DNA from: Novacetimonas maltaceti
Lineage (GTDB): Bacteria > Pseudomonadota > Alphaproteobacteria > Acetobacterales > Acetobacteraceae
DNA length: 64,000 nucleotides
Direction of reading: 5' to 3'
Assembly: GCF_002906255.1 (NCBI RefSeq)
Contig: NZ_POTC01000006.1
Coordinates: 1-64,000, forward strand
Part shown: positions 6,142 to 64,000 of the stretch, in pieces
How positions within the stretch are numbered: position 1 is the stretch's first letter
Layout of the letters: every line of letters starts with the position of its first letter
The notes under the pieces: model-generated
What the model saw: the letters and a program-made list of their open reading frames with translations, nothing else
The model's database searches: none
Told to the model about the DNA's origin: nothing
Program-made: the position numbers and the translations under genes

Positions 6142-6282
6142 GCAGCAGGCATGAGCGGACCCACATCATGCCACACGATATCCGCTGCGCGGATGACGGC
6201 ACATGATATGCCTCAATGTTTACGATGTTTACAATATTTGCGGGGTATTATTTTACACTAAGGCGGCATGCGTCCGCTGCAT
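6142..6282. promoter_or_regulatory. AT-rich upstream region of pdeA operon with tandem ATGTTTAC repeats
   Basis: Short non-coding gap upstream of the minus-strand PDE/DGC operon. It is distinctly AT-rich for this genome and holds two copies of ATGTTTAC in tandem (6216-6223 and 6225-6232, period 9). It is a plausible promoter/operator zone for the operon; no confident -35/-10 pair was identified. Confidence 0.4.
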
Positions 6283-49177: not shown

Positions 49178-49943
49178 GAACATTCCAGAAAAAAGCGCGT
49201 GGTATATCGGCGCGACCCCGCGTGACGTGGGCGATGTCGCGATCCTGATCGGCGATCCCGCGCGCGTGGAGCGCATTGCCACCCACCTTGACGACGTGCA
49301 CCGCGTGCCGGTCAACCGGGGGCTGCAGACCATCACCGGCACGCGGGCGGGCACGCGCATCACCGCCACCGCATTCGGCATGGGCGCGCCCATCGCCGCC
49401 GTCGTGCTGGAGGAACTGCGTGCGCTGGGGGTGCATACCTTCGTGCGCATCGGCACCGCCATGGCCGCCGGCGCGGTGCAGCTGGGCGATTTCGTGCTGG
49501 CCGAAGCCGCGCTGCGGCGCGAGGGCACGTCCGACAGCTATGCCCCGCCCGGATACCCGGCGGTGTCGGACACGACGCTCAATGCCGCCATCACCGATAC
49601 CCTGCACGCGCAGTCCACGCGCCGCCACCATACCGGCGTGTTCGCCAGCTATGACGGGTTCTATTCCCAGATGTTCGCCCTGCCGGGATCGCGCAGCCGC
49701 GTGCGCGAGGAGCTGCTTGACGATATCGCGCGCTTTGGCCTGATCGCGGCCGACATGGAAACCTCCGCCCTGCTGGTGGCGGGGCGGATGCTGGGCGCGC
49801 GCACCTCCAGCCTGTGCGTCGCGACCGTCGATCCCGTCAGCCAGGAGAAGCTCGACGCCGGGCGCATGGCTGCGGCGGAACATGACCTGTTCGAGGCGGC
49901 GATCAACGCGCTGTGCCATCCCACGCTCAAGGAAACACGATAA
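49170..49943 (+). CDS. Nucleoside phosphorylase (uridine phosphorylase-like, PNP/UDP family)
   Basis: 257 residues. Motifs of the trimeric/hexameric NP-I family: AILIGDPARVERIA (phosphate site), GLQTITGTRAGTRITATAFGMGAPIAAVVLEEL, VRIGTAMAAGAVQLGDFVLA, and the ribose-binding IAADMETSALLVAGRMLGA. Closest in pattern to uridine phosphorylase. It would split the imported nucleoside into base and (deoxy)ribose-1-phosphate. Confidence 0.88.
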   Translation: MAENIPEKSAWYIGATPRDVGDVAILIGDPARVERIATHLDDVHRVPVNRGLQTITGTRAGTRITATAFGMGAPIAAVVLEELRALGVHTFVRIGTAMAAGAVQLGDFVLAEAALRREGTSDSYAPPGYPAVSDTTLNAAITDTLHAQSTRRHHTGVFASYDGFYSQMFALPGSRSRVREELLDDIARFGLIAADMETSALLVAGRMLGARTSSLCVATVDPVSQEKLDAGRMAAAEHDLFEAAINALCHPTLKETR

Positions 49944-50710
49944 TGACCGATATCATCGAGGAATATTTCGACGTCCTGATCGCGCGCCTGGGCCGTGTGC
50001 GCGACACGCAGGCCGAGAACATCCGCGCGGCGGCGAAGCTGTGCGCGCGCAGCATCGCGCGCGACAAGCTGGTCTTCACCTTCGGCACCGGCCATGGCGC
50101 CCTGCCCGCGATCGAGACGTTCCCGCGCACCGGCACGGTGGCGGGTTTCCGCCCCATCGTCGAAAGCAGCATGATCTCCTTCCACCATGTGCTGGGCGAC
50201 CAGGGCGCGCGGCAGTACCGCTTCATCCATGCGGTGGAAGGCTATGGCAAGGCGATCCTGTCGGCGCATCACCTCGATGCGGAAGACACGCTGATCCTGT
50301 TTTCACATTCGGGCATCAATGCCGTCATCCTCGACATGGCGCTGCAGGCGAAGGCGCTGGGCATGAAGGTCATCGCGGTGACGTCGCTGCCGCATTCCTC
50401 CACCACCGCGTCGCGCCATTCCAGCGGGCAGCGCCTGTTCGAGGTCGCGGACGTGGTGATCGACACCGGCGTGCCAAAGGCCGACGCCAGCCTGAAGATC
50501 GCGGGGCTGGAGGCGCCGGTGGGGGCCAGTTCGACCTCCATCACCATCGCGATCGCGCATGCCATCGTGTCCGCCACGGCGCAGGAACTCGTGGCGCAGG
50601 GGATCACCCCGCGCGTCATGATCAACCCGAACACGGAACACAAGGAAGCCGCGAACCGCCACAACGACGAAAATTACGCCGATATGTGGCGTCGCCTGCG
50701 CGCACGCTGA
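49943..50710 (+). CDS. SIS-domain sugar-phosphate isomerase/binding protein
   Basis: 255 residues, single SIS domain spanning most of the protein: LVFTFGTGHGALPAIETFPRTG, LILFSHSGINAVILDMALQAKALGMKVIAVTS, GASSTSITIAIAHAIV. Resembles uncharacterised sugar isomerase domain proteins (UPF0309 type) often next to sugar transporters. Expected to interconvert an aldose/ketose phosphate from the nucleoside sugar. Start ATG shares one base with the phosphorylase stop codon. Confidence 0.83.
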   Translation: MTDIIEEYFDVLIARLGRVRDTQAENIRAAAKLCARSIARDKLVFTFGTGHGALPAIETFPRTGTVAGFRPIVESSMISFHHVLGDQGARQYRFIHAVEGYGKAILSAHHLDAEDTLILFSHSGINAVILDMALQAKALGMKVIAVTSLPHSSTTASRHSSGQRLFEVADVVIDTGVPKADASLKIAGLEAPVGASSTSITIAIAHAIVSATAQELVAQGITPRVMINPNTEHKEAANRHNDENYADMWRRLRAR

Positions 50711-50727
50711 ACAGGACGGGCATCATC

Positions 50728-52203
50728 ATGGACATCACCGACAACACACGCCCCCTGTTCATCGGCGGGCAATGGGTCGCGCCGCAGGGCGGTACGTACC
50801 GACCGGTCATCGACCCGGCGACGGGACAGGCGATCGGCCGGACGGCCATTGCCGATGGCGTGGACGTGGAACACGCGGTGGCTGCGGCGCACGCGGCCTT
50901 TCCCGCATGGTCACGCGCCATGCCCGATGCGCGCGCGGCCATCATGCGGCGCGCGGCAGACCTGATCGAACAGCGCGTCGACCACATCGCCACCGCCCTG
51001 ACGCGCGAACAGGGCAAGCCGGTTCCCGATTCGCGCAAGGAGATCCTGTTTGGCGCCGAGGTCCTGCGCTATTACGCGGAGGAAGGGCGGCGCATGGGCG
51101 GCACGCTGCGCCCGTCGGTGCGGCCCGACATCCGCAGCATCGTCTCCTCCGGTCCGGTGGGCGTGGTTGCGGCCATTGTCCCATGGAACTATCCCGTGGA
51201 CCTGTATGCATGGAAAATCGCCCCGGCGCTAGCCGCCGGATGCACCATGGTGGTCAAGCCGCCCCCCGAAACCCCGTTCGCCATCGCCGCCGTCATCGAC
51301 TGCCTGACCGAGGCGGGGCTGCCGGCGGGGGTGCTCAACGACATTCCGGGCGACGGGCCGGATGTGGGGGCCGCGCTGTCGGCGCATCCGGGCATCAGCC
51401 TGATTTCCGCCACCGCGTCGGTCCCGGCGGGGCAGGCGATCATGCGCGCGGCGGCAGGCAACCTAAAGCGCGTGGCGCTGGAACTGGGCGGGCAGTGCCC
51501 GTTCGTGGTGCTTGACGACGCGGATATCGAGGACGCGGCCGCCGCCGCCGCACGGCGCAGTTTTTCCAACATGGGGCAGATCTGCATCGCGGTGAACCGC
51601 ATCCTGGTCGCGCGCAGCGTGCAGGACCGCTTTGTCGAGGCGCTGGTGGCCATCACGTCGGCCATCCGTCCGGGGCCGGGCATCGAACCCGGCGTCACCT
51701 ATGGCCCGGTGATGAACGACAGCGTGCGCGAACGCGCGGACCTGCATGTGCGCGACGCCGTGGACCGGGGGGCAAGGCTGCTGTGCGGGGGGCATGCGCT
51801 GCATGACGGCGTGCCCGAAGGCGGGTTCTATTACAGTCCCGCCGTCCTGACGGACGTGCCGGCCGACGCGCTGGCGATGACGCACGAGACGTTCGGCCCG
51901 GTCGCGGCCATCCATGCGTTCGACACCGATGCGCAGGCGCTGTCGCTGGCCAATGCCCTGCCCTTTGGCCTGGCGGCCTATGTCTACAGCCGCGACCTGG
52001 AGCGGGCATGGGGCCTGGCCGATCATATCGAGGCCGGGGGCATCGGCATCAATGTCAATGACGTCAGCGAACTCCAGGCCCCCTTTGGCGGCTGGAAGAT
52101 GAGCGGGCACGGGCGCGAACTCGGCCCCGAGGGGCTGGCGCTGTACCGCGAGAGCCGACACATCCGCATGCGGGTCCGCCCGCCTGCCCTCCCGCCCGGA
52201 TAG
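50728..52203 (+). CDS. Aldehyde dehydrogenase of the nucleoside-type operon
   Basis: 491 residues, ALDH superfamily: LFIGGQWVAPQGG, GPVGVVAAIVPWNYPVDLYAWKIAPALAAG, LELGGQCPFVVLDDAD (base E), catalytic C in NMGQICIAVNRIL, HETFGPVAAIHAF, FGGWKMSGHGRELG. Likely oxidises a small aldehyde made from the sugar (for instance glycolaldehyde or a semialdehyde). 17 bases after the SIS gene; last gene of the operon. Confidence 0.87.
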   Translation: MDITDNTRPLFIGGQWVAPQGGTYRPVIDPATGQAIGRTAIADGVDVEHAVAAAHAAFPAWSRAMPDARAAIMRRAADLIEQRVDHIATALTREQGKPVPDSRKEILFGAEVLRYYAEEGRRMGGTLRPSVRPDIRSIVSSGPVGVVAAIVPWNYPVDLYAWKIAPALAAGCTMVVKPPPETPFAIAAVIDCLTEAGLPAGVLNDIPGDGPDVGAALSAHPGISLISATASVPAGQAIMRAAAGNLKRVALELGGQCPFVVLDDADIEDAAAAAARRSFSNMGQICIAVNRILVARSVQDRFVEALVAITSAIRPGPGIEPGVTYGPVMNDSVRERADLHVRDAVDRGARLLCGGHALHDGVPEGGFYYSPAVLTDVPADALAMTHETFGPVAAIHAFDTDAQALSLANALPFGLAAYVYSRDLERAWGLADHIEAGGIGINVNDVSELQAPFGGWKMSGHGRELGPEGLALYRESRHIRMRVRPPALPPG

Positions 52204-52283: not shown

Positions 52284-54683
52284 ATGCGTTCGAAGTATCT
52301 GCTGTTTGTCTCTCTCTTTGCCTTCCTGCCCCTTGATACCGTCCTGGCGCAGGATCGCCCCAATTCGCCCACGCCCGACCCGCGCCTGCACGCCAACAAG
52401 GCCAAGCCCACGGGCGGCGGCACGGCCACGAAAAAAGCCACGCAGCAGCCACCGCAGGTCATGGAGAACATCAACGTCACGTCCAACGCGGCCGCCACCA
52501 ACGGCGTCACCGGCGCGGGCGTTGGCGCGGGCCTGATCCGCAGGGAGACCGCCCCGCGTTCGGTCAGCACCGTTTCGGCCAACTACATCCAGAAACAGAC
52601 CCCCGGCACCAGCGCGCTGCAACTGATCAAGATGCTGCCGGGCGCGAATGTGGGCGGGTCGGACCCGATCGGCCTGTCGGACCAGTCCACGCTGTCGATC
52701 CGCGGGTTGGGACAGGATGAGATCGGTTACGTGATGGAGGGCATCCCCCTCAATGACAGTGGCATCTACATCCAGGATGCGTCCGAATGGGCGGATTCCG
52801 AAAACATGAGTTCGATTTCCGTGGCACAGGGCGCGCCCGGCCTGACGGACCCGGTCTATACCTCCGCCGGGGGCGTGATGACGGTGGGCATCCGCAACCC
52901 GTCGAACAAGTTCGGCATCTTCACCGACGCCGCCTATGGCACCTATACCACCAACCGCGAGTTCATCCGCCTCGATACCGGGGAGCTTGGCCATACCGGG
53001 GTCAAGGCGTTCGTCTCCTTCTCCGCCGCGAGCAGCCAGAACTCCCACGGGCCGGGGTGGAACCACCGCCGCCATGTGGATTTCAAGCTGCAGAAGGAAT
53101 GGGGCGACAACAGCATATCCCTGTTCGGGTCGTATAACAGCCGCGATGTCGCCTATTACATGGAACCGACCATGTCGCAATGGAACGCGCTGCATTATTC
53201 GGCCAACTATGCCGGCAGCTATACGCCGGGCAAGACGAATTACTGGAAGAACTATATCGGCGGGTGGAACGATTTCATGATCAGCGCGCCGATCAGGCTG
53301 GCGCTGACGGACCACCTGCATTTCACCAGCACGCCGTATTTCTACTGGGGCAGCGGCTATTACCCCGGCGGCACCATGGTGAACGAGACGGGGAATTACA
53401 TCGGCACGCAGTACCATCCCGAAAGCCTCAACCTGCCGGGGGCGATCAACAACCAGGTCAACGCGCTGGGGCAGTACCTGGAACAGGAATACACCTATGG
53501 CATCAACAGCGCGCTGCATTACGACATCGGACGACACAAGATCACGCTGGGATACTGGTATGATTACCAGAGCAACGCCGTGCAGATGCCCTTCGCCGCG
53601 CTGAATTCACGCGGGGAGGCCCGCAACGCCATGGGCGGCTACAGCATCACCTACCCCGACGGGCAACTGCTGCTGGCGGGCAACAACTTCACCGGCACGC
53701 AGATCAACGGCATCTATGTCGGGGACAAGGTCTCGCTCGACCATGACCGGCTGCAGATCAGCGCGGGCTTCCGCGAGATGATGATCTCGCGCAAGGGCGA
53801 CAACTACCTGCCGGGGCCGCAGTCGCATGTGGGGGAAAACACGTCACAGCCGCTGCCGCAGTTCTCGCTGAGCTACCGGCCGAGCCCGTACCACCAGATC
53901 TTCGTCTCCGCCAGCGGCAATTTCCGCCCGCCCTCGACCTCCAACCTGTTCAACAACTACAGCATCACCACCGGCGCGATCACCAGCATCCCGAACACGA
54001 AGCTGAAGGATGAATATTCGATCCAGGAGGAAATCGGATACCGGTATCAAAAGGACATCGTCGCGTCGGTCACGTTCTTCAACTACAACTTCACCAACCG
54101 GCAGATTTCGACCATCATCCCCGAAAATGGCGCGCTGGTCAGTTCGTACATCAATGCGGGCGGGCAGACGTCGCGCGGCTTTGACGCGGAAATCGGCACG
54201 AAACCGTACCATCATTTCAGCCCCTATGCCTCGGTCGAGTACCTGCACGCCACGACCGACAGCAACATCGCCGTGGGCGGGGACTACCTGCATACCGCGG
54301 GCAAGACCGCCATCCGCAGCCCGCAGTGGCAGGCCGCCGTCGGGCTGTCCTATGACGACGGGATGTTCTTTGCCAACGGGAACATGAAATATGTCGGCAG
54401 CCAGTATTCGACCTTCATGGATGACGAGAAGATGCCAAGCTACATCACCGGCGACCTTGCGCTGGGTGTGCGGCTGAAGAAGGTGTGGGTGGCGAAGGCG
54501 CCTGAATTCCGCCTGAACTTCATCAATATCGGCAACACGAAATACCTGTCGGGCATCGCGGGCGCCGCCCTGAACGCCAAGAGCTATACCGGCATGCGCG
54601 GGACCCAGATCTCCGGCTCCTCCGCTTCGTATTTCGTCGGTGCGGGCTTTGCGATGATGGGGAGCTTCCAGACCGCCTTCTGA
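52284..54683 (+). CDS. TonB-dependent outer membrane receptor (paralogue 2)
   Basis: 799 residues. Signal peptide (1-22, AQD), Pro/Lys-rich linker, plug (about 85-215: ANYIQKQTPGTSALQLIKMLPGANVGG, LSIRGLGQDEIGYVMEGIPLND), 22-strand barrel ending FQTAF. Shares many segments with the receptor at 18662. Start behind AAGGGG (8-base spacing). Following the nucleoside-type operon with an 80-base gap, it might supply the outer-membrane step for the same substrate, but no shared transcript is proven. Confidence 0.9.
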   Translation: MRSKYLLFVSLFAFLPLDTVLAQDRPNSPTPDPRLHANKAKPTGGGTATKKATQQPPQVMENINVTSNAAATNGVTGAGVGAGLIRRETAPRSVSTVSANYIQKQTPGTSALQLIKMLPGANVGGSDPIGLSDQSTLSIRGLGQDEIGYVMEGIPLNDSGIYIQDASEWADSENMSSISVAQGAPGLTDPVYTSAGGVMTVGIRNPSNKFGIFTDAAYGTYTTNREFIRLDTGELGHTGVKAFVSFSAASSQNSHGPGWNHRRHVDFKLQKEWGDNSISLFGSYNSRDVAYYMEPTMSQWNALHYSANYAGSYTPGKTNYWKNYIGGWNDFMISAPIRLALTDHLHFTSTPYFYWGSGYYPGGTMVNETGNYIGTQYHPESLNLPGAINNQVNALGQYLEQEYTYGINSALHYDIGRHKITLGYWYDYQSNAVQMPFAALNSRGEARNAMGGYSITYPDGQLLLAGNNFTGTQINGIYVGDKVSLDHDRLQISAGFREMMISRKGDNYLPGPQSHVGENTSQPLPQFSLSYRPSPYHQIFVSASGNFRPPSTSNLFNNYSITTGAITSIPNTKLKDEYSIQEEIGYRYQKDIVASVTFFNYNFTNRQISTIIPENGALVSSYINAGGQTSRGFDAEIGTKPYHHFSPYASVEYLHATTDSNIAVGGDYLHTAGKTAIRSPQWQAAVGLSYDDGMFFANGNMKYVGSQYSTFMDDEKMPSYITGDLALGVRLKKVWVAKAPEFRLNFINIGNTKYLSGIAGAALNAKSYTGMRGTQISGSSASYFVGAGFAMMGSFQTAF

Positions 54684-55040: not shown

Positions 55041-55499
55041 TTAACAGACGTACGGCGGGGTCTGGGCGGCGGCATGCGTCGCCTGCGCGTCACATTCGCG
55101 GCCGTAGGATTCCGCGCGGGAGATTTCCATATGCACATCCGGCAGGCGCGCCATCAGCGTGCTGCCGGTATGGTCGATACTGTCCATGGTGCGCCCGGCG
55201 TAACAGGACTGCGCCCATGCTTCCATCAGGGCGGTGCCTGCCATGTCATTCTCTGTGGCAAGGTCCGTCAGGTCCGTCCCGATCGCCTCGCGCGCCTCCG
55301 TGGTGGGCCTGATGTTCCGTTCCATGACCGAACGCCCCGCCGCGTCAAGCCACAGGGCGGCAAGGGATTCGACCTCATTGCGCCACGACAGCAACATCTC
55401 GTGCAGTTCCTCAAGGCGTTCGTGCGCGTCACGCGCATGGCCGTGAAGGACCTCCAGGCTGGAGGTCGGCGTTACGTTATCGCGGTCGATGCTGAACAT
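55041..55499 (-). CDS. Helical protein with W-x-D turn, last gene of the WXG/FtsK locus
   Basis: 152 residues, no signal peptide. Predicted helix-turn-helix hairpin: long helix 20-48 (HARDAHERLEELHEMLLSWR), then LAALWLDAAGRSVMERN with W50-L51-D52 followed by AAG, similar in place and character to the WxG-AA turn of WXG100 proteins. C-terminal half is helical with three cysteines (CYAG, ECDA, final C). Start behind GAGGAGG; 18 bases after the gene upstream. Perhaps a third WXG-like partner or a substrate. Confidence 0.6.
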   Translation of the reverse strand: MFSIDRDNVTPTSSLEVLHGHARDAHERLEELHEMLLSWRNEVESLAALWLDAAGRSVMERNIRPTTEAREAIGTDLTDLATENDMAGTALMEAWAQSCYAGRTMDSIDHTGSTLMARLPDVHMEISRAESYGRECDAQATHAAAQTPPYVC

Positions 55500-55517
55500 C
55501 GTCGGGCCTCCTCGACC

Positions 55518-56516
55518 TTACAGGGTTCGGGTGTCAAATTTCTGCATCAGCGCCGCCTTGTCCATCAGGCGGTCATCCGCGCGCGTCGCGTCGTGCGCAT
55601 TGTCCCCGGCGCGGGCGCGGATGCTGTGGAACTGCTCCGTGCCGATATCGACATGATTGCGCCCGACCTGGGCCTGACGGGCGCAGGCATCGGCATGTTC
55701 GCGCATCACGTCAAGCAGGCGGTCCATTTCCTGCACCAGGGGATAGATGTCCCTGGCGGTGCGTATGACGTCATTCGCGCTCGCCACGGCCTGGCGCCCG
55801 ACACGGACGGCATGCCCCGCAATAGAGACCGCGTGAATCCCCCGATTGCGGCAGTCGGTGCAGATGTTTTCACGCGCCTGCGCATGGCCCAGCGCCTGAT
55901 GCGCGCCGTTCAGTGCGCATTCGGCGCCGAACACCTCGGTCTGGGCATGTTCCAGTTGGGATTGCGCGGCATATACCGCATTGGCATAGGACGCGCAGTT
56001 GGGATAGACGATGTGTCCCTGGTTATCATAGCTGACATCCGCCTCACAACTCGCCAGAGCGGACTGCGCGCTCGACAGCGCGGACTGGGCGCTCCCCGCC
56101 CGGTTCTGCGCCATCATCAACCGCCCCGATGCGGCGGAGACAGCGGCCTGCGCGTTGGTGCGCTCGATGATGGCCATGCTCAGTTGGCCTTCCCAGTGGT
56201 GCAGCACGCTATTGGCCTCGCATTCCACCTGCCTGGCGCGCGCCTCTCGACTGCTGGCGGCGCTGTGGGCGGACTGCGCCGCCGCATGGACGGCGTCCAG
56301 TTCGCTGCGCCAGTACTGCACGCGCTGCATCGCCTCATGCAGGGCCTCGCCCGTGGCCTGCGCGCGCGCGATGGCGTCCGACGCCTCCTCCATCAGCAGG
56401 GCCTGCACGGTGCCAAAGACCGCCACGGCATCGACCAGCGCGCGCTGCGGGTCGTAATGACGGTCTTTCGTCTCCTCCATCAGGCCGACCACGGCAGCCG
56501 GTTCGATCATGTCCAT
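55518..56516 (-). CDS. Coiled-coil, cysteine-containing protein of the WXG/FtsK locus
   Basis: 332 residues, almost wholly alpha-helical and Ala/Gln/Glu-rich (AHSAASSREARARQVECEANS, AGSAQSALSSAQSALASCEAD). Seven or so cysteines, including ICTDCRNRG, interrupt the coil near the middle. No signal peptide or membrane helix. The length and helical character recall LXG/ESX-type secreted substrates or EspA/EspB-like helical proteins, but no homology is recognised. 8 bases after the second WXG-like gene, so in the same operon. Confidence 0.6.
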   Translation of the reverse strand: MDMIEPAAVVGLMEETKDRHYDPQRALVDAVAVFGTVQALLMEEASDAIARAQATGEALHEAMQRVQYWRSELDAVHAAAQSAHSAASSREARARQVECEANSVLHHWEGQLSMAIIERTNAQAAVSAASGRLMMAQNRAGSAQSALSSAQSALASCEADVSYDNQGHIVYPNCASYANAVYAAQSQLEHAQTEVFGAECALNGAHQALGHAQARENICTDCRNRGIHAVSIAGHAVRVGRQAVASANDVIRTARDIYPLVQEMDRLLDVMREHADACARQAQVGRNHVDIGTEQFHSIRARAGDNAHDATRADDRLMDKAALMQKFDTRTL

Positions 56517-56524
56517 GGCAGGAA

Positions 56525-56806
56525 TCAGATCCCGGCGCCCGCCGTGTCAAGGCGCGTGAGCACTTCGATACGGACCTGCAGCGCCTTCTGGATCGCGTCC
56601 ATCGCCTCGTTACATTCACGCATCTTCAGGACGCTGGCGTTGAACATGTCGGCGAACTGCTCCGCCGCCTGCCCGGAATAGACGGTGGCGAACATGGTCC
56701 AGCTCTGCTCCAGCTGCTCGAAGGCCGCCTGGATGGCCTCACGGCTGCGCAGCAGCGCCGCGTCGTAATCGTTGAGAACGCCAATCAGGGCTGTCGTGTC
56801 GATCAT
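56525..56806 (-). CDS. WXG100-like small protein B (Y-S-G turn)
   Basis: 93 residues, two helices (about 5-38 and 46-85) joined by a turn TVYSGQAAEQF with Y43-S44-G45 at the position of WXG. The GQAAEQF that follows is typical of ESAT-6/WXG100 proteins (WxGxAAxxF). No signal peptide. Its ATG overlaps the stop of the partner gene by 4 bases, the arrangement seen for esxB/esxA-type pairs. Good Shine-Dalgarno GGAGG. Predicted to form a heterodimer with protein A and to be a substrate of the FtsK-type ATPase. Confidence 0.7.
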   Translation of the reverse strand: MIDTTALIGVLNDYDAALLRSREAIQAAFEQLEQSWTMFATVYSGQAAEQFADMFNASVLKMRECNEAMDAIQKALQVRIEVLTRLDTAGAGI

Positions 56807-57084
56807 TGTCCGGCCTCCATGTATTCCTCAAGGATCGCAAGCTTCTCCGCGATGAACTCACGATAGGCGGGCGCGTCCTGCGTGCTCCACAGGTTCAGCG
56901 CCTCGCTCAGTTCCTGCCACGAGGCATTGTAGCGCATCGAACTCTGGTCATTGTCCCATGCGGCCATCGCCTCGTCATGGAAGCGTGTCAGCTCCACGAG
57001 CGTACTGGACAGTACGTCGCTGAACTCCTCCAGGCTCCTGTTGAACTGCTGCATCTGTTCGAATGTCTCATCAAGCGATGACAT
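56803..57084 (-). CDS. WXG100-like small protein A (W-D-N turn)
   Basis: 93 residues from the ATG behind GGGAGAG (a TTG five codons earlier is less likely). Helix 1 (about 5-40: TFEQMQQFNRSLEEFSDVLSSTLVELTRF), turn AAWDNDQ with W43-D44-N45, helix 2 (about 53-90: ASWQELSEALNLW...EFIAEKLAILEEYME). Same length and same turn position as protein B. Lies 74 bases after the ATPase gene. Identification as WXG100-like rests on size, hairpin architecture, motif position and context. Confidence 0.65.
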   Translation of the reverse strand: MSSLDETFEQMQQFNRSLEEFSDVLSSTLVELTRFHDEAMAAWDNDQSSMRYNASWQELSEALNLWSTQDAPAYREFIAEKLAILEEYMEAGQ

Positions 57085-57158
57085 CGTCCGCTCTCCCAAG
57101 CAAAGTATGGTCCACGATTCCCGGCGCAGGTGTCCTGCGTGCCGCCATCAGTCCGCGC

Positions 57159-60100
57159 TCATTCCCCGAACAGGGTCACCAGCGACCTTTCCTGCGACGG
57201 CCCCATCAGGTTTACCGTCGTCACGTTTTCTTCCGCGTCGTCGCGGCTGCGGCTGGTCGGGGTGCTGACCCCCACCCCGCGCGCAAGCTCACGCGTCAGG
57301 ATGTCGAACACGATCCAGTGGAACGTCTCCCCAAGCGCGTTCGCCCGCGCCTGGAACACCTTGCCCACCTCCGCCATCGTATTGCACAGCATGATCGTGT
57401 GCTGCCCCGTCTCCGGCCCCTTGCCCAGCCGCTTCGACAGCGCGTTGCCCGCGCTGCGCGCGGCCAGCGTGTCCGGGACCCGCAGGTCCGGCGCCTGGTC
57501 GGGACCGATCAGCAGCAGCACGTCGGCGCTGCCGTCCGGGGCGCGGGCCTCCAGGAAGTCCTTTGCGTCGGCGGCATTTTCCGACACCACCCAGTGCGCG
57601 GGCATCGGCCGCCCGGTCAGGGCGATGGCAGCGTCGATCACCCCACGGAAGGTATCGGCATACAGCGCGGTATTGAGGATGCGCACCGATCCCACCACCG
57701 AAGGCGCCAGCGAGGCGAGCGAGACGATGATCCCGGCCAGCAGCTTGCCCTGCAGGTCGCTGTCCTTGACCACCGACAGCAGGTTTTCCCCATCCCCGCG
57801 CCACAGCACCGCGCTGGCCTGCCCATGCAGGGAGGTGTCGCGTCCCAGCAGCAGCGGCACGGGATGGATCTGCGCATCGAGCCGGACGGGGAAAAGGCCC
57901 TTCTCCTCCGGCCGCTGCGCGGCCAGCGCCTCGAGCGCCGCAGCGTCGAGCGGCGCGCCCGTGGCCTGCATGCGCTGCAGCAGGAAGTTGCCCGACAGCG
58001 TCGGCAGCGTCAGCCCGTCGATCACCTCCAGCCGCGGCCAGTGCGCCTTCTGCGCGTCGGTCCGGCGGCGGGCCAGTTCGTCGAATTTCGCAAACAGCGG
58101 CGCCAGCCGCGCATTGTCGTCCTGCGATGCGCCGGGGGCGTTGATCTCCGCATCGCTCCGGCCATCGAGCAGGTCCACATGCCCGACGACGTTGCCATCC
58201 TTGCCGCCGTCGCTGTTGACCAGGATGTCACCGCGTTCACGGACCATGCTGCGCAGCAGGGCCTTGCCCTCGCGGTTGAATTCCTCCAGCCCCTCGATCG
58301 CATCCCCCGACAGTTTCATCGACATGCGCAGCGCGATGTTGCTGAAGATGTTCCGGCCCTGCGTCATGCCGGGCGCCTTCATGCTCTGCGATGACAGCAG
58401 GATGTGGATGCCCGCCGAACGCCCCTTGGCGACCAGGTTCTGGATCACCTTGGAAATCTTCGGCGCCTGGTCGGCGTTGCGGAACATGACCTGGTATTCG
58501 TCGATCACGATCAGGAGGCGCGGCGCGGGGCCACGGGGCTGGCCCGCATTGTGATAGGCGGTGATGTTCTTGAACTGCCCGTGCCCGTCGTCATTGTCAC
58601 GGAACAGCTTGATGTTGCGCCGGGTCATCTCCGCATCGAGGTTCTCCAGCAGCGAGCCGACATACGGCAGCGCCGTGCTGGTCGCGATGACCGCCGTGTG
58701 CGGCATCTGCCGGTAGATGTTGAACTCCGTCCCGTCCTTGAGGTCCACGAGGTAGAACTGCAGTTCATCGGGGGAATAGCGCATCGCAAGGCCAAAGATC
58801 AGCACTTCGAGCATCTTCGACTTGCCGCTGCCGGTCTGCCCCGCCAGCACGCCCGCCGTGACGATGCGGCACAGGCCATCGGGTTCCTCCCCGAACAGGA
58901 CGCTCGGGCCGTCGGGCGTGTTCGTCAGGGGGGTCTGGATGAAATGCACCGCCCTGTGGGTCCACCATTTGCTCACGGGCGGGATCACGGCGAAACTGCT
59001 GCCCTTCACCGGGCGGGCCAGCGATTGCAGGATCCGCGTATGCAGCGGCGCGGGCGGCAGGCGGTCCACCGCGATGCCGGCCCCCGTCGCGGCCCCCGCC
59101 GCAAGGGTGCGCAGGTCGATGACATGCGCGCCCTTGCGGACGTCATCGAACCCCTGCGGCAGCTTCTCGACGCCGTCGCCGCGCGCGCCGAACTGGTGCG
59201 CAGGCGGCGTGACATTGACATGCGCGACAAGGTAGCGCCCCACCGGCGGGCCGTTGAGGGCGATCTCGCGCAGCTTCGCGGACAGGGCGTCATATTTCGG
59301 GTCGCCCACGTCCAGCGCGCAGACCACCTCGTATCCCCCCGCAAGCTTCTGCTCCTCGCGGGTCCAGGAATGGAAGTCGGGACGCCCCTGCAGCATCGTG
59401 CGCGTCGCATCCACCAGGTCGTTGCAGATCGTCGCCAGCGCATTGGCCGGCTGCGCGGAATCGACCGGGCGGCATGACGGCAGGTATGTCTGCTGCGCGA
59501 ACGCACGGCCAAGCCCCACCGGGTCAAGCAGGCTGAAGCGCACGTCATCGGTCATCATGCACGCAAGGCGCAGCACCAGCACGCGCACCAGTTCATGGGC
59601 CATGTCCTTCGTGCTGTCATCGGACAGGATCAGCCACGATTTCTGCCCCGCGATCAGCGGCAGGTACGCAATGGCGCCCGACGGGCCACGTTCCCTGCCC
59701 CAGCGCAGCAGGAAACCGTCATCGCCGTTGCGCGTCAGGCCCGCGGGCCTGCCACTGCGGCGCCAGCGCAGCCATTGCGGCGCCCATTCGGCCCGCAGCC
59801 CCGCGCAGTCATCGGCAGTGAAGGACGCGTTGAGGTGGAAATGATCCGGCGCGAACATCGCCTCGCGCACGGTTGCGCCCGCGTCACCGACGATGTGCGC
59901 GCACAGCGCGACCGACGGCGCGCTGTCCGTGCCGCCGCCCTGCGCCACCAGCCGGTCATGTTCCGCCCGCCACGCCGCGTTGCATGCCTCCTGCCCTTCC
60001 ACCGCGATGGCGCGCAGCAGCGCGTGCGGCGGCCTGCTGCCGGGGGGGGCGGACCTCGGCGGCGGCGCGACCTCGGGGGCCGCTTCGGGCGTGGGTTCGG

Positions 60101-60164
60101 GCGCGGGTTCGGGTGTTGCGGCAGGCGTGGGAACCATGCTCAGGAGGTCTTCAATGGACTTCAT
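57159..60164 (-). CDS. FtsK/SpoIIIE-type ATPase (EccC/EssC-like)
   Basis: 1001 residues. Residues 15-45 are Pro/Ala/Glu-rich. A first FtsK-like module (about 165-360) keeps RFSLLDPVGLGRAFA but lacks Walker A. The central module (about 400-650) is intact: Walker A AGQTGSGKS (441-449), FYLVDLKDGTEF, Walker B LLIVIDEYQ (550-558), GRSAGIHILLSSQS (581-593). A third module (about 715-1001) is again degenerate. No membrane helix is predicted, unlike EccC/EssC. Multi-module FtsK ATPases with one active site drive WXG100 export in type VII systems; here the two WXG-like genes follow directly. Confidence 0.88.
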   Translation of the reverse strand: MKSIEDLLSMVPTPAATPEPAPEPTPEAAPEVAPPPRSAPPGSRPPHALLRAIAVEGQEACNAAWRAEHDRLVAQGGGTDSAPSVALCAHIVGDAGATVREAMFAPDHFHLNASFTADDCAGLRAEWAPQWLRWRRSGRPAGLTRNGDDGFLLRWGRERGPSGAIAYLPLIAGQKSWLILSDDSTKDMAHELVRVLVLRLACMMTDDVRFSLLDPVGLGRAFAQQTYLPSCRPVDSAQPANALATICNDLVDATRTMLQGRPDFHSWTREEQKLAGGYEVVCALDVGDPKYDALSAKLREIALNGPPVGRYLVAHVNVTPPAHQFGARGDGVEKLPQGFDDVRKGAHVIDLRTLAAGAATGAGIAVDRLPPAPLHTRILQSLARPVKGSSFAVIPPVSKWWTHRAVHFIQTPLTNTPDGPSVLFGEEPDGLCRIVTAGVLAGQTGSGKSKMLEVLIFGLAMRYSPDELQFYLVDLKDGTEFNIYRQMPHTAVIATSTALPYVGSLLENLDAEMTRRNIKLFRDNDDGHGQFKNITAYHNAGQPRGPAPRLLIVIDEYQVMFRNADQAPKISKVIQNLVAKGRSAGIHILLSSQSMKAPGMTQGRNIFSNIALRMSMKLSGDAIEGLEEFNREGKALLRSMVRERGDILVNSDGGKDGNVVGHVDLLDGRSDAEINAPGASQDDNARLAPLFAKFDELARRRTDAQKAHWPRLEVIDGLTLPTLSGNFLLQRMQATGAPLDAAALEALAAQRPEEKGLFPVRLDAQIHPVPLLLGRDTSLHGQASAVLWRGDGENLLSVVKDSDLQGKLLAGIIVSLASLAPSVVGSVRILNTALYADTFRGVIDAAIALTGRPMPAHWVVSENAADAKDFLEARAPDGSADVLLLIGPDQAPDLRVPDTLAARSAGNALSKRLGKGPETGQHTIMLCNTMAEVGKVFQARANALGETFHWIVFDILTRELARGVGVSTPTSRSRDDAEENVTTVNLMGPSQERSLVTLFGE

Positions 60165-60241
60165 GGTTCTTCAGATCCTTTGCTGCCGGGAATACGGGTG
60201 CGATGATCGCGCGGCATGCACGCGCCTTGGGATGGCATGCA

Positions 60242-63200
60242 TCATGAAATGGTCTCCAGCACCTTCACCGAAGGCATCAGGATACGGCAGAAGCAGGTCT
60301 CCTTGTCCTTGCCCATGTGCTGCGCCATCCATGCGCTGGTGCACGGCAGGATATGCGCAAGCCGCATCTGGTCCACAGCCTTGCCCCTGAGGATAGGGAG
60401 GACGAGGGGAACATTCGTGTCCGGGTTCACGACATCCAGCTTCACCGGCAGCGCTCTGATGCTCTGGCCCAGATCGGGGATCGTTTTCCTGAAAGCGACA
60501 GTGTCCACGTCCTCGCTCATCAGTCCGTTGAGGAACGGGACATACCTGTTCATGTCGGGAAGCGCTTTCGTGGCGGCCTTCAGCAGGTCAAAACCGTGCT
60601 TCTCGTTACGGAAAAAGAGAGCGCGGTGCTGGTAGAGGTAGTACATCCCTTCGCCGAACAGGCCCCAGCCGACCTTCTTTTTCGCCAACTGTTCGAAAAT
60701 CTTCAGGGCCGTGGTCTCGCTTTGCGAAACACCGATGCCAAGGGCATGGCAGTAGGCCAGACGCAACAGCGCCCATTCACTACCGCTGTCCGCGGCACGC
60801 CTGGTCCATTTGAACATCCTGTCCGGGTCGGCGCACGGGTTTTCGGTATGGGCGGAATAGACGTACGACAGGATCAGCATCGACCCATGATCGCCCTTCT
60901 CCGCCAACTGCTCGTACTGCTCGAGCGCAATCCGGCGGTAACGCCCCTCCGCCAGCGAACCGGCGCCGAGATACGCGCGCAGGTACACCCGCAACTGGGG
61001 ATCTTCCCCGGCGGCAATGGCACGTTCGTAATACTGTGCCGCCTGCAGGTAGTAGGCCTTGACCATGTCCGTGGCGGCAGGGTTGCCATCATATGTCCGC
61101 CCTGCCGCAGCGCGGAAGAAATCCCCCACGAACGCCAGAGGCGTCAACAACTCTTTCGTGTTGATGCAGCGTTCGGCGCGCTCCGGATCCTGCATGTAAC
61201 CGACGCACCGGTTGAACGGTACGTCGCCGACGGCAGGGTCATTCATCCAGCACAGCATCAGTCCCAGCACGGCCCGGGCATCGTACTTCCCCTCACCCGT
61301 CGGCGTCAGGACGTCGCCATACCATTTGCTGGCCTTGACATAGTTCTTGCGGTTCCGTTCGGTGTCGCCAAGCAGGATTTGCACATCCGGATGATCCGCC
61401 ACGCCGGGTTCGGTGAGCATCGCCACACCGCCATCGACATCAAGGGGGCAGAACTTCCCGTCAATCATCAGCTTGCCGTACAGACGCTTTGCGTTCACGC
61501 TCCCCTTGGCCACCCCCTGCCGGAGCAGGTCGATCGCACGGGTCTTGTCGGGCGCGCCGGGCACGACATTGCTCAGCGCAAGCGACGCCAGCAACCCCAT
61601 GGCATCGGCATTTCCCAGTTCCACGGCCTTTTCCAGCCATGAAATCGCGTCGGGCCATTCCTGCCTGCCCACACGGAATTTGCCCAGTTCATACATCGCC
61701 CGCGCGCTGTCCGGAACCTTCGCCTCCGCCGCCTGCGTAAACAGTGCGACGGCACGCTCGCGCACCGTGGGGTCCGTTTCCTGCACATACAGGCAGCCAG
61801 CCGCGATCATGGCCTCGACGCTGCCCATTTCGACCGCCTTCAGGTACCACTCCAGGGCCTCGGGGGTATCGTGCGCCACACCGTTGCCATCGCGCAGGCT
61901 GTCGGCATAGCGCACCATCGACTGCCGGTTCCCCCCCCGCGCCGCCATGGCATCGAAATGGGCCGCCTTGCGCGGATCCGGCGCGAACGGAATTTTCCCC
62001 TCCACGCGCCCCCGTCTGATGGAGCGCCAGCTATACAGGCAGCCCAGCGTGTTCATTGCATCCACGGAGCCCAGTTTGACCGCCTGCTCCAGCAGGCGCA
62101 GCCCTTCGTCCACCTCGGGCTTCAGCACGTCCTTCACGCCAATGACGCAGCACATGCCAAGGTAGCTCATGACCTTAGGGTCATCCCCGGAGGCGGCAGC
62201 CAGCTTGAGCCAGCGGATCGCCTCTGCAAGGCTGACGTCCGACGTATTCTCGAAAACCTGCAGCCCCAGCTTCTTCTGCGCGGCGCAATCGCCCAGTCCG
62301 GCTGCCTCCCGACATGCGGCAAGGGCCGCCGCATCATCCTTCGGCCCCCCGATCCCCTGTTCGAAACACCGGACCAGCAGGACAAAGGCCGCGCGCCGCT
62401 CGACCGGGTCGAGGGAACTTCGCTCTGCCGTCGCCTGCTTCAGCAGCGCCACCGCGCGCGCGGCCTCGGCCGGGGCGGGGCTGTCGCCATCAAGGATCTG
62501 CTTCGCCGCCTGATACGCATACGAGAAGTTCCCAAGCTCGACCGCCCGGTTCTCCCACCTGCGCAGGTCGTTCGTGTCGGAGTCGTGGCGGCAGAGTTCG
62601 ATCAGCTTCTGCACGGCCTTCAGCGCCAGCGCGTCCGTGCTCTGCGCGACGCGCATCAGCCACTTCTTCGCCTTGTCGCGGGTGGCGGGATCGGGCGGCA
62701 GCATGGCGGCATACGTCATCCCCGCGCCGAACATGCCCTGCATATTCCGCCTGTTTCCCGCCTTTTCATACCAGGCGGCGCTGGCGGCGAAGTCGGGGCT
62801 CAGCCGGGCGGCGTGCAGCATGGCCTCCACATTGCCCGCGGTCCCCGCCTTTTCATACCATTTCAGCGCATCCGCCTTGTCCGGGCTCAGCCGGGCGGCA
62901 TTCATCATGCCGTCGACGTCGCCCGCGGCCCCCGCCTTTTCATACCATTTCAGCGCATCCGCCTTGTCCGGGCTCAGCCGGGCGGCGGCCATCATGCCGT
63001 CGACGTTGCCCGCGGCCCCCGCCTTCCCGTACCAGTCCAGGGCCCCGGAGAGGCTGACCTCAACCCCTTTGCCTTCCTCAAGGAAGCAGCCGTAATTGAA
63101 CATGCCCTCGCCAGAGCCCTTCTGCGCCGCCATGAGATAGTATTCGGCCGCGGCCTTCAGGTCGGTGGCAAACGGGCTTTGGCCCTCCAGTTCCTCGAAG

Positions 63201-64000
63201 GTGACTGTCTTTTTCTCATAAAGCTCGCCAAGCACCAGCATCGCATCATCGTCGCCAAGCTGGCATGCCTCATTGAGCAGCCGCTCCCCTTTCCTCAGGT
63301 CGACCTTGAGGTCCCGGCGCGGGCCGACCAGGTAGCACCAGCCCAGTACGGTCATGAGGGAGGAGTCCTTCTTTTCGGCCCCTTTCATCAGCCACGACAG
63401 CGCCTCGTCCGCCGGAAGGCCATAGCTTGGAAACGCATACAGGACGCCCATCTTGCGGGCGCAATCCCCGTTGCCAAGTTCCGCCCCGGCGCGCAAGTAA
63501 TCGATCCCGGCGCCATAGTCGCAATCGCTGTCCCCGTACAAGCCTAACGCCGACGAGGCCAGCAGATCCAGCGCCGCGCCACGCTGTGCATTGTTGGCCC
63601 CACTGTCCTTTGCCACGACCTTCTTCAGCAGCGACATCGCGCGCGCGCGCATGGTGGCGGAAGGAGCCCGTTTCCCAAGGAGGTTGCGCGCGACCGCCAC
63701 GCCGGTGTCCACGTCGCCCAGCGCGAAGGCGCGGTCTTGCCACCGGTACCGTTCGGTCGGGTCGGGATCGCGCGCATGGACCCGCATCAGGGCACGCGAG
63801 GCCTGCAGCGCGAAACTGCTGTCGCCCAGGGCGACCTTCTGCAGCAGCGCGATTCCGCGGCTGCGGTCGGCAGGGGATGCCCCTTCGACGCAGTAAAGCT
63901 GCCCCGCGCCCAGTTCGCCTTCGGCATTCCCCTTGGCCGCGGCCCGGTTGTAGAATTCCAGCGACCGTGCCTCATCCCCACACAGCCGTGCCACGCCCAG
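60242..64000 (-). CDS. Giant Sel1/TPR-repeat protein (5' end beyond the window)
   Basis: At least 1250 residues, open to the window edge. Made of Sel1-like repeats throughout (AMLVLGELYE, GMFNYGCFLEEGKGVEVS, DWYGKAGAAGNVDGMM, AAELGNGDCARKMGVLY). Around 62780-63050 a 29-residue unit (ARLSPDKADALKWYEKAG core) is repeated almost perfectly three times. No signal peptide visible in the part seen. Sel1 proteins act as scaffolds; standing 77 bases before the ATPase gene on the same strand, it may be an assembly or regulatory platform of the WXG/FtsK locus. Confidence 0.8.
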   Translation of the reverse strand: MGVARLCGDEARSLEFYNRAAAKGNAEGELGAGQLYCVEGASPADRSRGIALLQKVALGDSSFALQASRALMRVHARDPDPTERYRWQDRAFALGDVDTGVAVARNLLGKRAPSATMRARAMSLLKKVVAKDSGANNAQRGAALDLLASSALGLYGDSDCDYGAGIDYLRAGAELGNGDCARKMGVLYAFPSYGLPADEALSWLMKGAEKKDSSLMTVLGWCYLVGPRRDLKVDLRKGERLLNEACQLGDDDAMLVLGELYEKKTVTFEELEGQSPFATDLKAAAEYYLMAAQKGSGEGMFNYGCFLEEGKGVEVSLSGALDWYGKAGAAGNVDGMMAAARLSPDKADALKWYEKAGAAGDVDGMMNAARLSPDKADALKWYEKAGTAGNVEAMLHAARLSPDFAASAAWYEKAGNRRNMQGMFGAGMTYAAMLPPDPATRDKAKKWLMRVAQSTDALALKAVQKLIELCRHDSDTNDLRRWENRAVELGNFSYAYQAAKQILDGDSPAPAEAARAVALLKQATAERSSLDPVERRAAFVLLVRCFEQGIGGPKDDAAALAACREAAGLGDCAAQKKLGLQVFENTSDVSLAEAIRWLKLAAASGDDPKVMSYLGMCCVIGVKDVLKPEVDEGLRLLEQAVKLGSVDAMNTLGCLYSWRSIRRGRVEGKIPFAPDPRKAAHFDAMAARGGNRQSMVRYADSLRDGNGVAHDTPEALEWYLKAVEMGSVEAMIAAGCLYVQETDPTVRERAVALFTQAAEAKVPDSARAMYELGKFRVGRQEWPDAISWLEKAVELGNADAMGLLASLALSNVVPGAPDKTRAIDLLRQGVAKGSVNAKRLYGKLMIDGKFCPLDVDGGVAMLTEPGVADHPDVQILLGDTERNRKNYVKASKWYGDVLTPTGEGKYDARAVLGLMLCWMNDPAVGDVPFNRCVGYMQDPERAERCINTKELLTPLAFVGDFFRAAAGRTYDGNPAATDMVKAYYLQAAQYYERAIAAGEDPQLRVYLRAYLGAGSLAEGRYRRIALEQYEQLAEKGDHGSMLILSYVYSAHTENPCADPDRMFKWTRRAADSGSEWALLRLAYCHALGIGVSQSETTALKIFEQLAKKKVGWGLFGEGMYYLYQHRALFFRNEKHGFDLLKAATKALPDMNRYVPFLNGLMSEDVDTVAFRKTIPDLGQSIRALPVKLDVVNPDTNVPLVLPILRGKAVDQMRLAHILPCTSAWMAQHMGKDKETCFCRILMPSVKVLETIS
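62770..63040. repeat. 87-bp coding tandem repeat in the Sel1 gene
   Basis: Three consecutive units of 87 bases; two are nearly identical (TTTCATACCATTTCAGCGCA ... TCCGCCTTGTCCGGGCTCAG on the plus strand) and the third diverges. Encodes the 29-residue Sel1 variant; likely a copy-number-variable tract. Confidence 0.8.

What the first reader, a model, noticed from the sequence alone, without database searches (positions are those of the whole stretch)
55041..64000. ESX/type VII-like module in a diderm alphaproteobacterium
One minus-strand operon contains a Sel1-repeat giant, a multi-module FtsK/SpoIIIE ATPase with a single intact Walker A/B site, two adjacent 93-residue helical-hairpin proteins of WXG100 type, and two more helical proteins. 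Type VII systems are known from Actinobacteria and Firmicutes; canonical EccB/D/E, MycP or EsaA/EssB partners are not visible here. How such a machine would work across two membranes, or whether it acts inside the cell (for instance in contact inhibition or defence), is open. Seen: genes and motifs. Inferred: secretion function.
Basis: partly seen in the sequence, partly recalled or inferred. Interest (0 to 1): 0.92.

Follow-up and report, generated by a model that had tools for sequence, protein, structure and literature searches.

The report
Diderm ESX-like (type VII-related) module
A relative of vinegar bacteria carries a compact gene cassette built from the two hallmark parts of the Gram-positive type VII secretion machine, and the same five-gene core turns up scattered in unrelated two-membrane bacteria, so it is a new variant of a little-studied and apparently never-tested kind of system.

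Summary
A minus-strand Novacetimonas operon encodes a Sel1-repeat giant (2381 aa, running out of the window), an EccC-type ATPase (1001 aa; FtsK-like segments, only the middle one with Walker A/B), two 93-aa helical hairpins of WXG100 type, a 332-aa coiled-coil protein and a 152-aa protein with a W-x-D-x-x-G-R motif. The order ATPase, hairpin 1, hairpin 2, coiled coil, WxD protein recurs in N. cocois, on a Deinococcus plasmid, in two species of another proteobacterial genus and in one MAG: a sporadic, apparently mobile cassette. The ATPase matches EccC far better than FtsK. 'Known only from Actinobacteria and Firmicutes' is too strong: WXG + FtsK modules in diderms are on record (Helicobacter pylori HP0062/HP0066; 'mobile versions of T7SS', Zhang 2012). 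The five-gene form in Alphaproteobacteria and Deinococcus appears undescribed. It is not a canonical T7SS: the ATPase has no predicted membrane anchor, and EccB/D/E, EssA/B and EsaA are not seen. A candidate envelope pair (secreted protein plus multi-pass membrane protein) lies just beyond the window, but its relatives also occur without the module. Most likely it is an ATP-driven handling or export device for small helical proteins; export is inferred, not shown.

The parts
60242..64000 (-). Sel1-repeat giant (2381 aa in full; gene runs on to contig position 67387, outside the window)
   Evidence: Pfam Sel1 4.6e-62; orthologs of 2376 aa in N. hansenii (53% identity) and 1112 aa in N. cocois
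57159..60164 (-). EccC-type FtsK/SpoIIIE ATPase, 1001 aa, no predicted N-terminal membrane helix
   Evidence: EccCa 6e-33; profile finds EccC 4nh0 at 5e-50, FtsK at 1e-14
58965..59672 (-). first, degenerate FtsK-like segment of the ATPase (residues 165-400), no Walker motifs
   Evidence: hhalign 91% probability against the middle domain; EccC 7e-4
58095..58964 (-). middle, active FtsK/EccC-type domain (residues 401-690)
58818..58841 (-). Walker A, GQTGSGKS
   Evidence: conserved in relatives
58497..58514 (-). Walker B, LIVIDE
   Evidence: conserved in relatives
57162..57872 (-). C-terminal alpha/beta segment (residues 765-1001), possibly a third degenerate FtsK-like domain
   Evidence: weak profile match only (8%); no solved relative
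56803..57084 (-). hairpin 1, 93 aa, WXG100-type (W-N-D at the bend)
   Evidence: homologs N. cocois 55%, Deinococcus 3e-13
56947..56958 (-). bend of hairpin 1 (W43-D46)
   Evidence: helices 3-42 and 47-92
56818..56832 (-). conserved C-terminal tail of hairpin 1 (LEEYM; hxxYL in relatives)
56525..56806 (-). hairpin 2, 93 aa, WXG100-type (Y-S-G motif)
   Evidence: Pfam WXG100 27.6 bits, over cut-off; TIGR03930 6e-7
56672..56680 (-). Y-S-G motif of hairpin 2
   Evidence: Y-x-G in all six loci
55518..56516 (-). coiled-coil protein, 332 aa, no toxin domain found
   Evidence: homologs in N. cocois, Deinococcus and others
55533..55568 (-). conserved C-terminal tail of the coiled-coil protein (LMDKAALMQKFD)
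55041..55499 (-). WxD protein, 152 aa helical protein with W-L-D-A-A-G-R motif
55332..55352 (-). W-x-D-x-[AS]-[GT]-[RQ] motif of the WxD protein
   Evidence: kept in all six loci

Best explanation
The operon is a diderm ESX-like module, a variant of the 'mobile versions of T7SS' noted by Zhang et al. 2012. Shown by sequence: an EccC-type ATPase with a single active site, genetically coupled to two WXG100-type hairpins, a coiled-coil protein and a WxD-motif helical protein, in the same order across distant bacteria. Inferred: the ATPase recognises the conserved C-terminal tails of hairpin 1 and the coiled-coil protein and uses ATP to pull, unfold or pass on these small helical proteins, as EccC/EssC does with Esx proteins and LXG toxins. 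The Sel1 giant is probably a cytoplasmic scaffold or adaptor (inferred from the general role of Sel1 repeats). Because the ATPase has no membrane anchor, export would need a membrane partner; the only candidate seen in Novacetimonas is the signal-peptide protein plus multi-pass membrane protein encoded divergently next to the Sel1 gene (contig 67561-69941, outside the window). That would carry substrates across the inner membrane; whether they cross the outer membrane is unknown. No toxin domain is encoded here, so an antagonistic role is suggested only by more distant relatives. Identity as an ESX-like module: about 0.93. Export as the function: about 0.5.
For: EccC-specific similarity of the ATPase and a single active middle domain, as Zhang 2012 described. 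WXG100-type hairpins by Pfam, profile, predicted structure and fold search. Same five-gene order in N. cocois, Deinococcus, G637, G720 and G641. Conserved C-terminal tails. A membrane-protein gene that co-occurs with the ATPase in 3 of 3 Novacetimonas species and is absent from the species without it, and whose homolog lies inside the operon of G637 and G720. More distant relatives pair the same ATPase type with a nuclease toxin and immunity protein.
Against: No predicted membrane helix in the ATPase; no EccB/D/E, EssA/B, EsaA or EsaB-like gene was recognised by the Pfam and NCBIfam scans of the cluster. The canonical YxxxD/E export motif is absent from both hairpins. The envelope pair also occurs alone on plasmids and is not found at the Deinococcus locus. 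In N. hansenii the small genes were not found in the draft assembly.
Confidence: 0.5

Rival explanations
1. A cytoplasmic conflict or defence device: the ATPase remodels helical-hairpin and coiled-coil complexes inside the cell in response to an invader or stress, without secretion.
For: Soluble ATPase; sporadic, plasmid-borne, fast-evolving distribution; more distant relatives sit with CARF, vWA, kinase, phosphatase, TerD or Hsp70 genes.
Against: No match to a defence family beyond the P-loop; homology of motor and hairpins to dedicated export parts; a linked membrane-protein gene; no sensor or effector domain recognised in the cluster.
Confidence: 0.3
2. A decaying remnant: a once complete system that has lost its membrane parts and toxin and no longer works.
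For: No toxin domain; small genes not found in the N. hansenii assembly; strong divergence between species.
Against: All frames are intact, Walker motifs and hairpin motifs are kept across phyla, and the same toxin-free five-gene set recurs in Deinococcus, G637, G720 and G641.
Confidence: 0.1
3. A DNA translocase with unrelated coiled-coil neighbours, with the ESX likeness due to chance.
For: Helical hairpins are simple folds; one hairpin scores low in Pfam; Foldseek E-values are not below 0.001.
Against: EccC-specific similarity, Pfam WXG100 over cut-off for the other hairpin, and recurrence of the same order across phyla.
Confidence: 0.05

Closest known systems
[quoted passage not shown] 2012, PMC3482391, Table 1 note 6)
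   [quoted passage not shown] mobile distribution
   Different: Alphaproteobacteria and Deinococcus are not listed there; the five-gene order, second hairpin, WxD protein and Sel1 giant are not described in the passages read
Helicobacter pylori HP0062/HP0066 and the TerY-P-linked WxG + FtsK island (PMC3397514, PMC4978471)
   Same: WXG100-like hairpin with a W-x-D bend, clustered with an FtsK-type ATPase, in a diderm; profile match 9e-13 to HP0062
   Different: One hairpin, nuclease toxin and, in the island, kinase/phosphatase/vWA genes; its plasmid relative falls in a different ATPase clade
Type VII secretion systems a-j of Actinomycetota and Bacillota (PMC11217815)
   Same: EccC/EssC-type ATPase and WXG100 hairpins in one cluster
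   Different: Membrane-bound ATPase and dedicated membrane subunits there; soluble ATPase with one active site and no such subunits recognised here

Membership tests
Type VII secretion system (T7SSa-j) | EccC/EssC-type ATPase | tested here: met
   EccCa 6e-33 (below the curated equivalog cut-off of 509 bits: 115 bits); PDB profile search EccC 5e-50
Type VII secretion system (T7SSa-j) | WXG100 protein encoded with the ATPase | tested here: met
   Pfam WXG100 over cut-off for one hairpin; profile and fold matches for the other
Type VII secretion system (T7SSa-j) | ATPase anchored by N-terminal transmembrane helices | tested here: not met
   Hydropathy scan: no N-terminal helix in the ATPase or its relatives; hydropathy only, no dedicated predictor
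Type VII secretion system (T7SSa-j) | Dedicated membrane subunits (EccB/D/E or EssA/EssB/EsaA) and EsaB-like protein | tested here: not met
   None among the proteins of the cluster and its two neighbours in Pfam and NCBIfam; the whole genome was not searched for each family
Type VII secretion system (T7SSa-j) | Secretion of the WXG100 protein | not testable with these tools
   Needs fractionation or proteomics
'Mobile T7SS' of Zhang et al. [quoted passage not shown]
   Only the middle domain has Walker A/B; first segment is a degenerate copy; third segment not proven
'Mobile T7SS' of Zhang et al. 2012 | Solo WXG proteins (no toxin fused) in the same cluster | tested here: met
'Mobile T7SS' of Zhang et al. 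2012 | Scattered (mobile) distribution | tested here: met
   3 of 61 genomes of one genus, 3 of 398 Pseudomonadota besides the own genome, and a Deinococcus plasmid
Anti-phage defence systems (PADLOC) | Match to a defence-protein model beyond the P-loop | tested here: not met
   Only P-loop matches of the ATPase to SspH and mad8

The most novel reading that the evidence does not exclude
A distinct class of ATP-driven export machine of two-membrane bacteria: a soluble EccC-type motor that reads C-terminal tails of WXG-type hairpins and a coiled-coil carrier, docks on a dedicated inner-membrane protein with a secreted or lipoprotein partner, and delivers helical proteins to the envelope or beyond.
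Probability: 0.3. Interest if true: 0.88.

Novelty: new variant of a known kind. Interest (0 to 1): 0.62.

Why it matters
ESX-like modules in two-membrane bacteria have been noted in passing since about 2012 but, in the papers found here, never tested. A conserved, compact five-gene cassette in harmless cellulose- and vinegar-type bacteria gives a safe system in which to ask whether type VII-like transport works in a diderm, and it suggests the minimal parts: one active ATPase site, two hairpins, one coiled-coil protein, one WxD protein and a possible membrane dock.

Tried and rejected
AlphaFold of the whole ATPase: mean pLDDT 36 with three sequences, so not used for a fold search. A hand-typed domain alignment (A12) held a mistyped start of one sequence; it was not used, and the domains were rebuilt from DNA references. 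Conserved Cys pair at the apex of the coiled-coil protein as a sign of an oxidising compartment: found in Novacetimonas, Deinococcus, Caballeronia and one Rhodococcus, but not in G637/G720, so not used as evidence of export. Empty-site comparison with the fourth Novacetimonas genome: its contig ends at the junction, inconclusive. IMG/VR scan: no relative. The genome-contig scan used genus-specific patterns and found only N. hansenii and N. cocois. Profile-profile comparison of hairpin 1 with hairpin 2: not significant. Plasmid search with hairpin 2 alone: nothing. Long ORFs on the opposite strand of these genes were taken as shadow ORFs of GC-rich coding sequence.

Full report
What is there. 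The window is the first 64,000 bases of a 109,301-base contig of a 3.6-Mb genome. Its same-genus relatives in the set include Novacetimonas hansenii and N. cocois, so the host is taken to be a Novacetimonas (Acetobacteraceae). Six genes lie close together, hairpin 1 and hairpin 2 overlapping by four bases: Sel1 giant 60242-67387 (beyond the window), ATPase 57159-60164, hairpin 1 56803-57084, hairpin 2 56525-56806, coiled-coil protein 55518-56516, WxD protein 55041-55499. Third-position G+C of 77-88% and conservation of the core frames in N. cocois (ATPase 46%, hairpins 55% and 46%, coiled coil 31%, WxD 27% identity) show that they are genes.

The ATPase. Pfam calls it FtsK_SpoIIIE, but the closest curated family is EccCa of type VII secretion (6e-33; DNA translocase FtsK 2e-5). 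A profile of four relatives finds T. curvata EccC at 5e-50, EccC5 at 4e-40, YukB at 2e-27 and FtsK only at 1e-14. There is a single Walker A/B pair, in the middle segment. The first segment is a degenerate copy of the middle one (hhalign 91%; EccC 7e-4). The last segment is only suggestive. No N-terminal membrane helix is predicted in it or in its diderm relatives, unlike the membrane-bound ATPases of T7SSa-j.

The small proteins. Hairpin 2 passes Pfam's WXG100 cut-off by 0.3 bits and carries Y-x-G where the family has W-x-G. Hairpin 1 is weak in Pfam. Its family profile, however, finds S. aureus EsxA (8.5e-4 with Novacetimonas and Deinococcus sequences alone) and H. pylori HP0062 (9e-13 when Caballeronia and Helicobacter sequences are included). 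AlphaFold gives two helices, 3-42 and 47-92, bent at W43, pLDDT 90. The best structural matches in the PDB are mostly Esx proteins and HP0062, though with E-values from 0.03 upwards, as expected for a simple hairpin. The 152-aa protein shares the motif W-x-D-x-[AS]-[GT]-[RQ] with its relatives in all six loci. Hairpin 1 relatives end in hxxYL-like tails (8 of 9 match the strict pattern; the ninth has a D in place of L/R/E) and all six coiled-coil proteins end in a tail like Lx[DE][KRQ]...L..[FLY][DN] (five match the strict pattern, G720 with Y for F/L); shuffled sequences show the strict patterns in 1% and 0.02%. The patterns were chosen after seeing the alignments, so these rates are only a guide. 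C-terminal signals are known for Esx substrates; that these tails are signals is inference.

Where else it occurs. The same order ATPase, hairpin 1, hairpin 2, coiled coil, WxD is found on a plasmid of Deinococcus actinosclerus, in two species of an unnamed genus (G637, G720) and in one MAG (G641) of the Pseudomonadota. In G637 and G720 hairpin 1 is assigned mainly by position, length and tail, since its profile score is marginal. In 61 genomes of that genus 3 have the ATPase; 3 of 398 Pseudomonadota besides the own genome have it at full length; none of the 56 relatives outside Novacetimonas searched has it. In an ATPase tree this group is separate (support 1.0) from the loci of Caballeronia, Helicobacter and two Rhodococcus plasmids. 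Those loci carry toxin-type effectors or regulatory genes: vWA, kinase, phosphatase and CARF in Caballeronia; a WHH/colicin-DNase protein beside a SUKH immunity protein in Helicobacter; Hsp70/GrpE or TerD in Rhodococcus.

Envelope parts. Just past the window, divergent from the Sel1 gene, lie a signal-peptide protein (contig 67561-68445) and a multi-pass membrane protein (68442-69941). The membrane protein is present in the three Novacetimonas species that have the ATPase and absent from the fourth and from 31 further relatives. Its homologs sit inside the operon of G637 and G720, behind a GDPD lipoprotein gene. But similar pairs occur alone on plasmids of Acetobacter, Salmonella, Aeromonas and Pseudoalteromonas, so the link is suggestive, not proof. 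Several relatives instead have a tail-anchored coiled-coil protein beside the ATPase.

Tempo. Flanking genes on one side are mostly 75-90% identical between this genome and N. cocois, while the operon is 27-55%, at the same chromosomal place.

Known before. Zhang et al. [quoted passage not shown] HP0062 of H. pylori was recognised as ESAT-6/WXG100-like and clustered with an FtsK-type gene. A 2016 H. [quoted passage not shown] The 2024 survey of T7SS variants is confined to Gram-positives. I found no description of the five-gene form, nor of it in Alphaproteobacteria or Deinococcus, within a library that lacks many subscription papers.

Verdict. A real, conserved, scattered ESX-like module: a new variant of a known but functionally untested kind. 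It works, most likely, like an EccC motor on hairpin and coiled-coil substrates. It is not filed as a member of T7SSa-j, because the anchored ATPase and the membrane subunits are lacking. Export is plausible (about 0.5); a cytoplasmic conflict role is the main rival (0.3).

Noticed in passing
L003:3012-3091 and 6104-6186 (contig 73011-73090 and 76103-76185): An element of about 80 bases in inverted orientation, with dozens of copies in the Novacetimonas genomes; looks like a REP-type repeat.
   Followed up: no
L003:717-1000 (contig 70716-70999): A stretch of about 280 bases with more than 25 partial copies in one Novacetimonas genome (G001), fewer in others.
   Followed up: no
L053, L054, L056, L058, L080: Pairs of a lipoprotein-like gene and a P0008-like multi-pass membrane protein gene stand alone on plasmids of Acetobacter, Salmonella, Aeromonas and Pseudoalteromonas (there with a GDPD protein), without ESX genes.
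   Followed up: partly
L040:7134-11536 (Helicobacter sp. NHP19-012 plasmid): WXG100-like hairpin, coiled coil with WHH/colicin-DNase domain, SUKH immunity protein and FtsK/EccC-type ATPase in one operon of a Gram-negative plasmid.
   Followed up: partly
L039:7829-17812 (Caballeronia sp. SBC2 plasmid): vWA, WXG100, coiled-coil protein with an unassigned C-terminal part, FtsK-type ATPase, CARF, phosphatase and kinase genes in one operon.
   Followed up: partly
L027 / L024:13619-13772 (N. hansenii JCM 7643): The contig ends 154 bases after the ATPase, and no hairpin or coiled-coil gene was found elsewhere in this draft.
   Followed up: partly
window 49882-52203 and 52284-54683, + strand: Two long ORFs just downstream of the operon; the second (799 aa) reads like a TonB-dependent outer-membrane receptor (from the sequence; no search run).
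   Followed up: no
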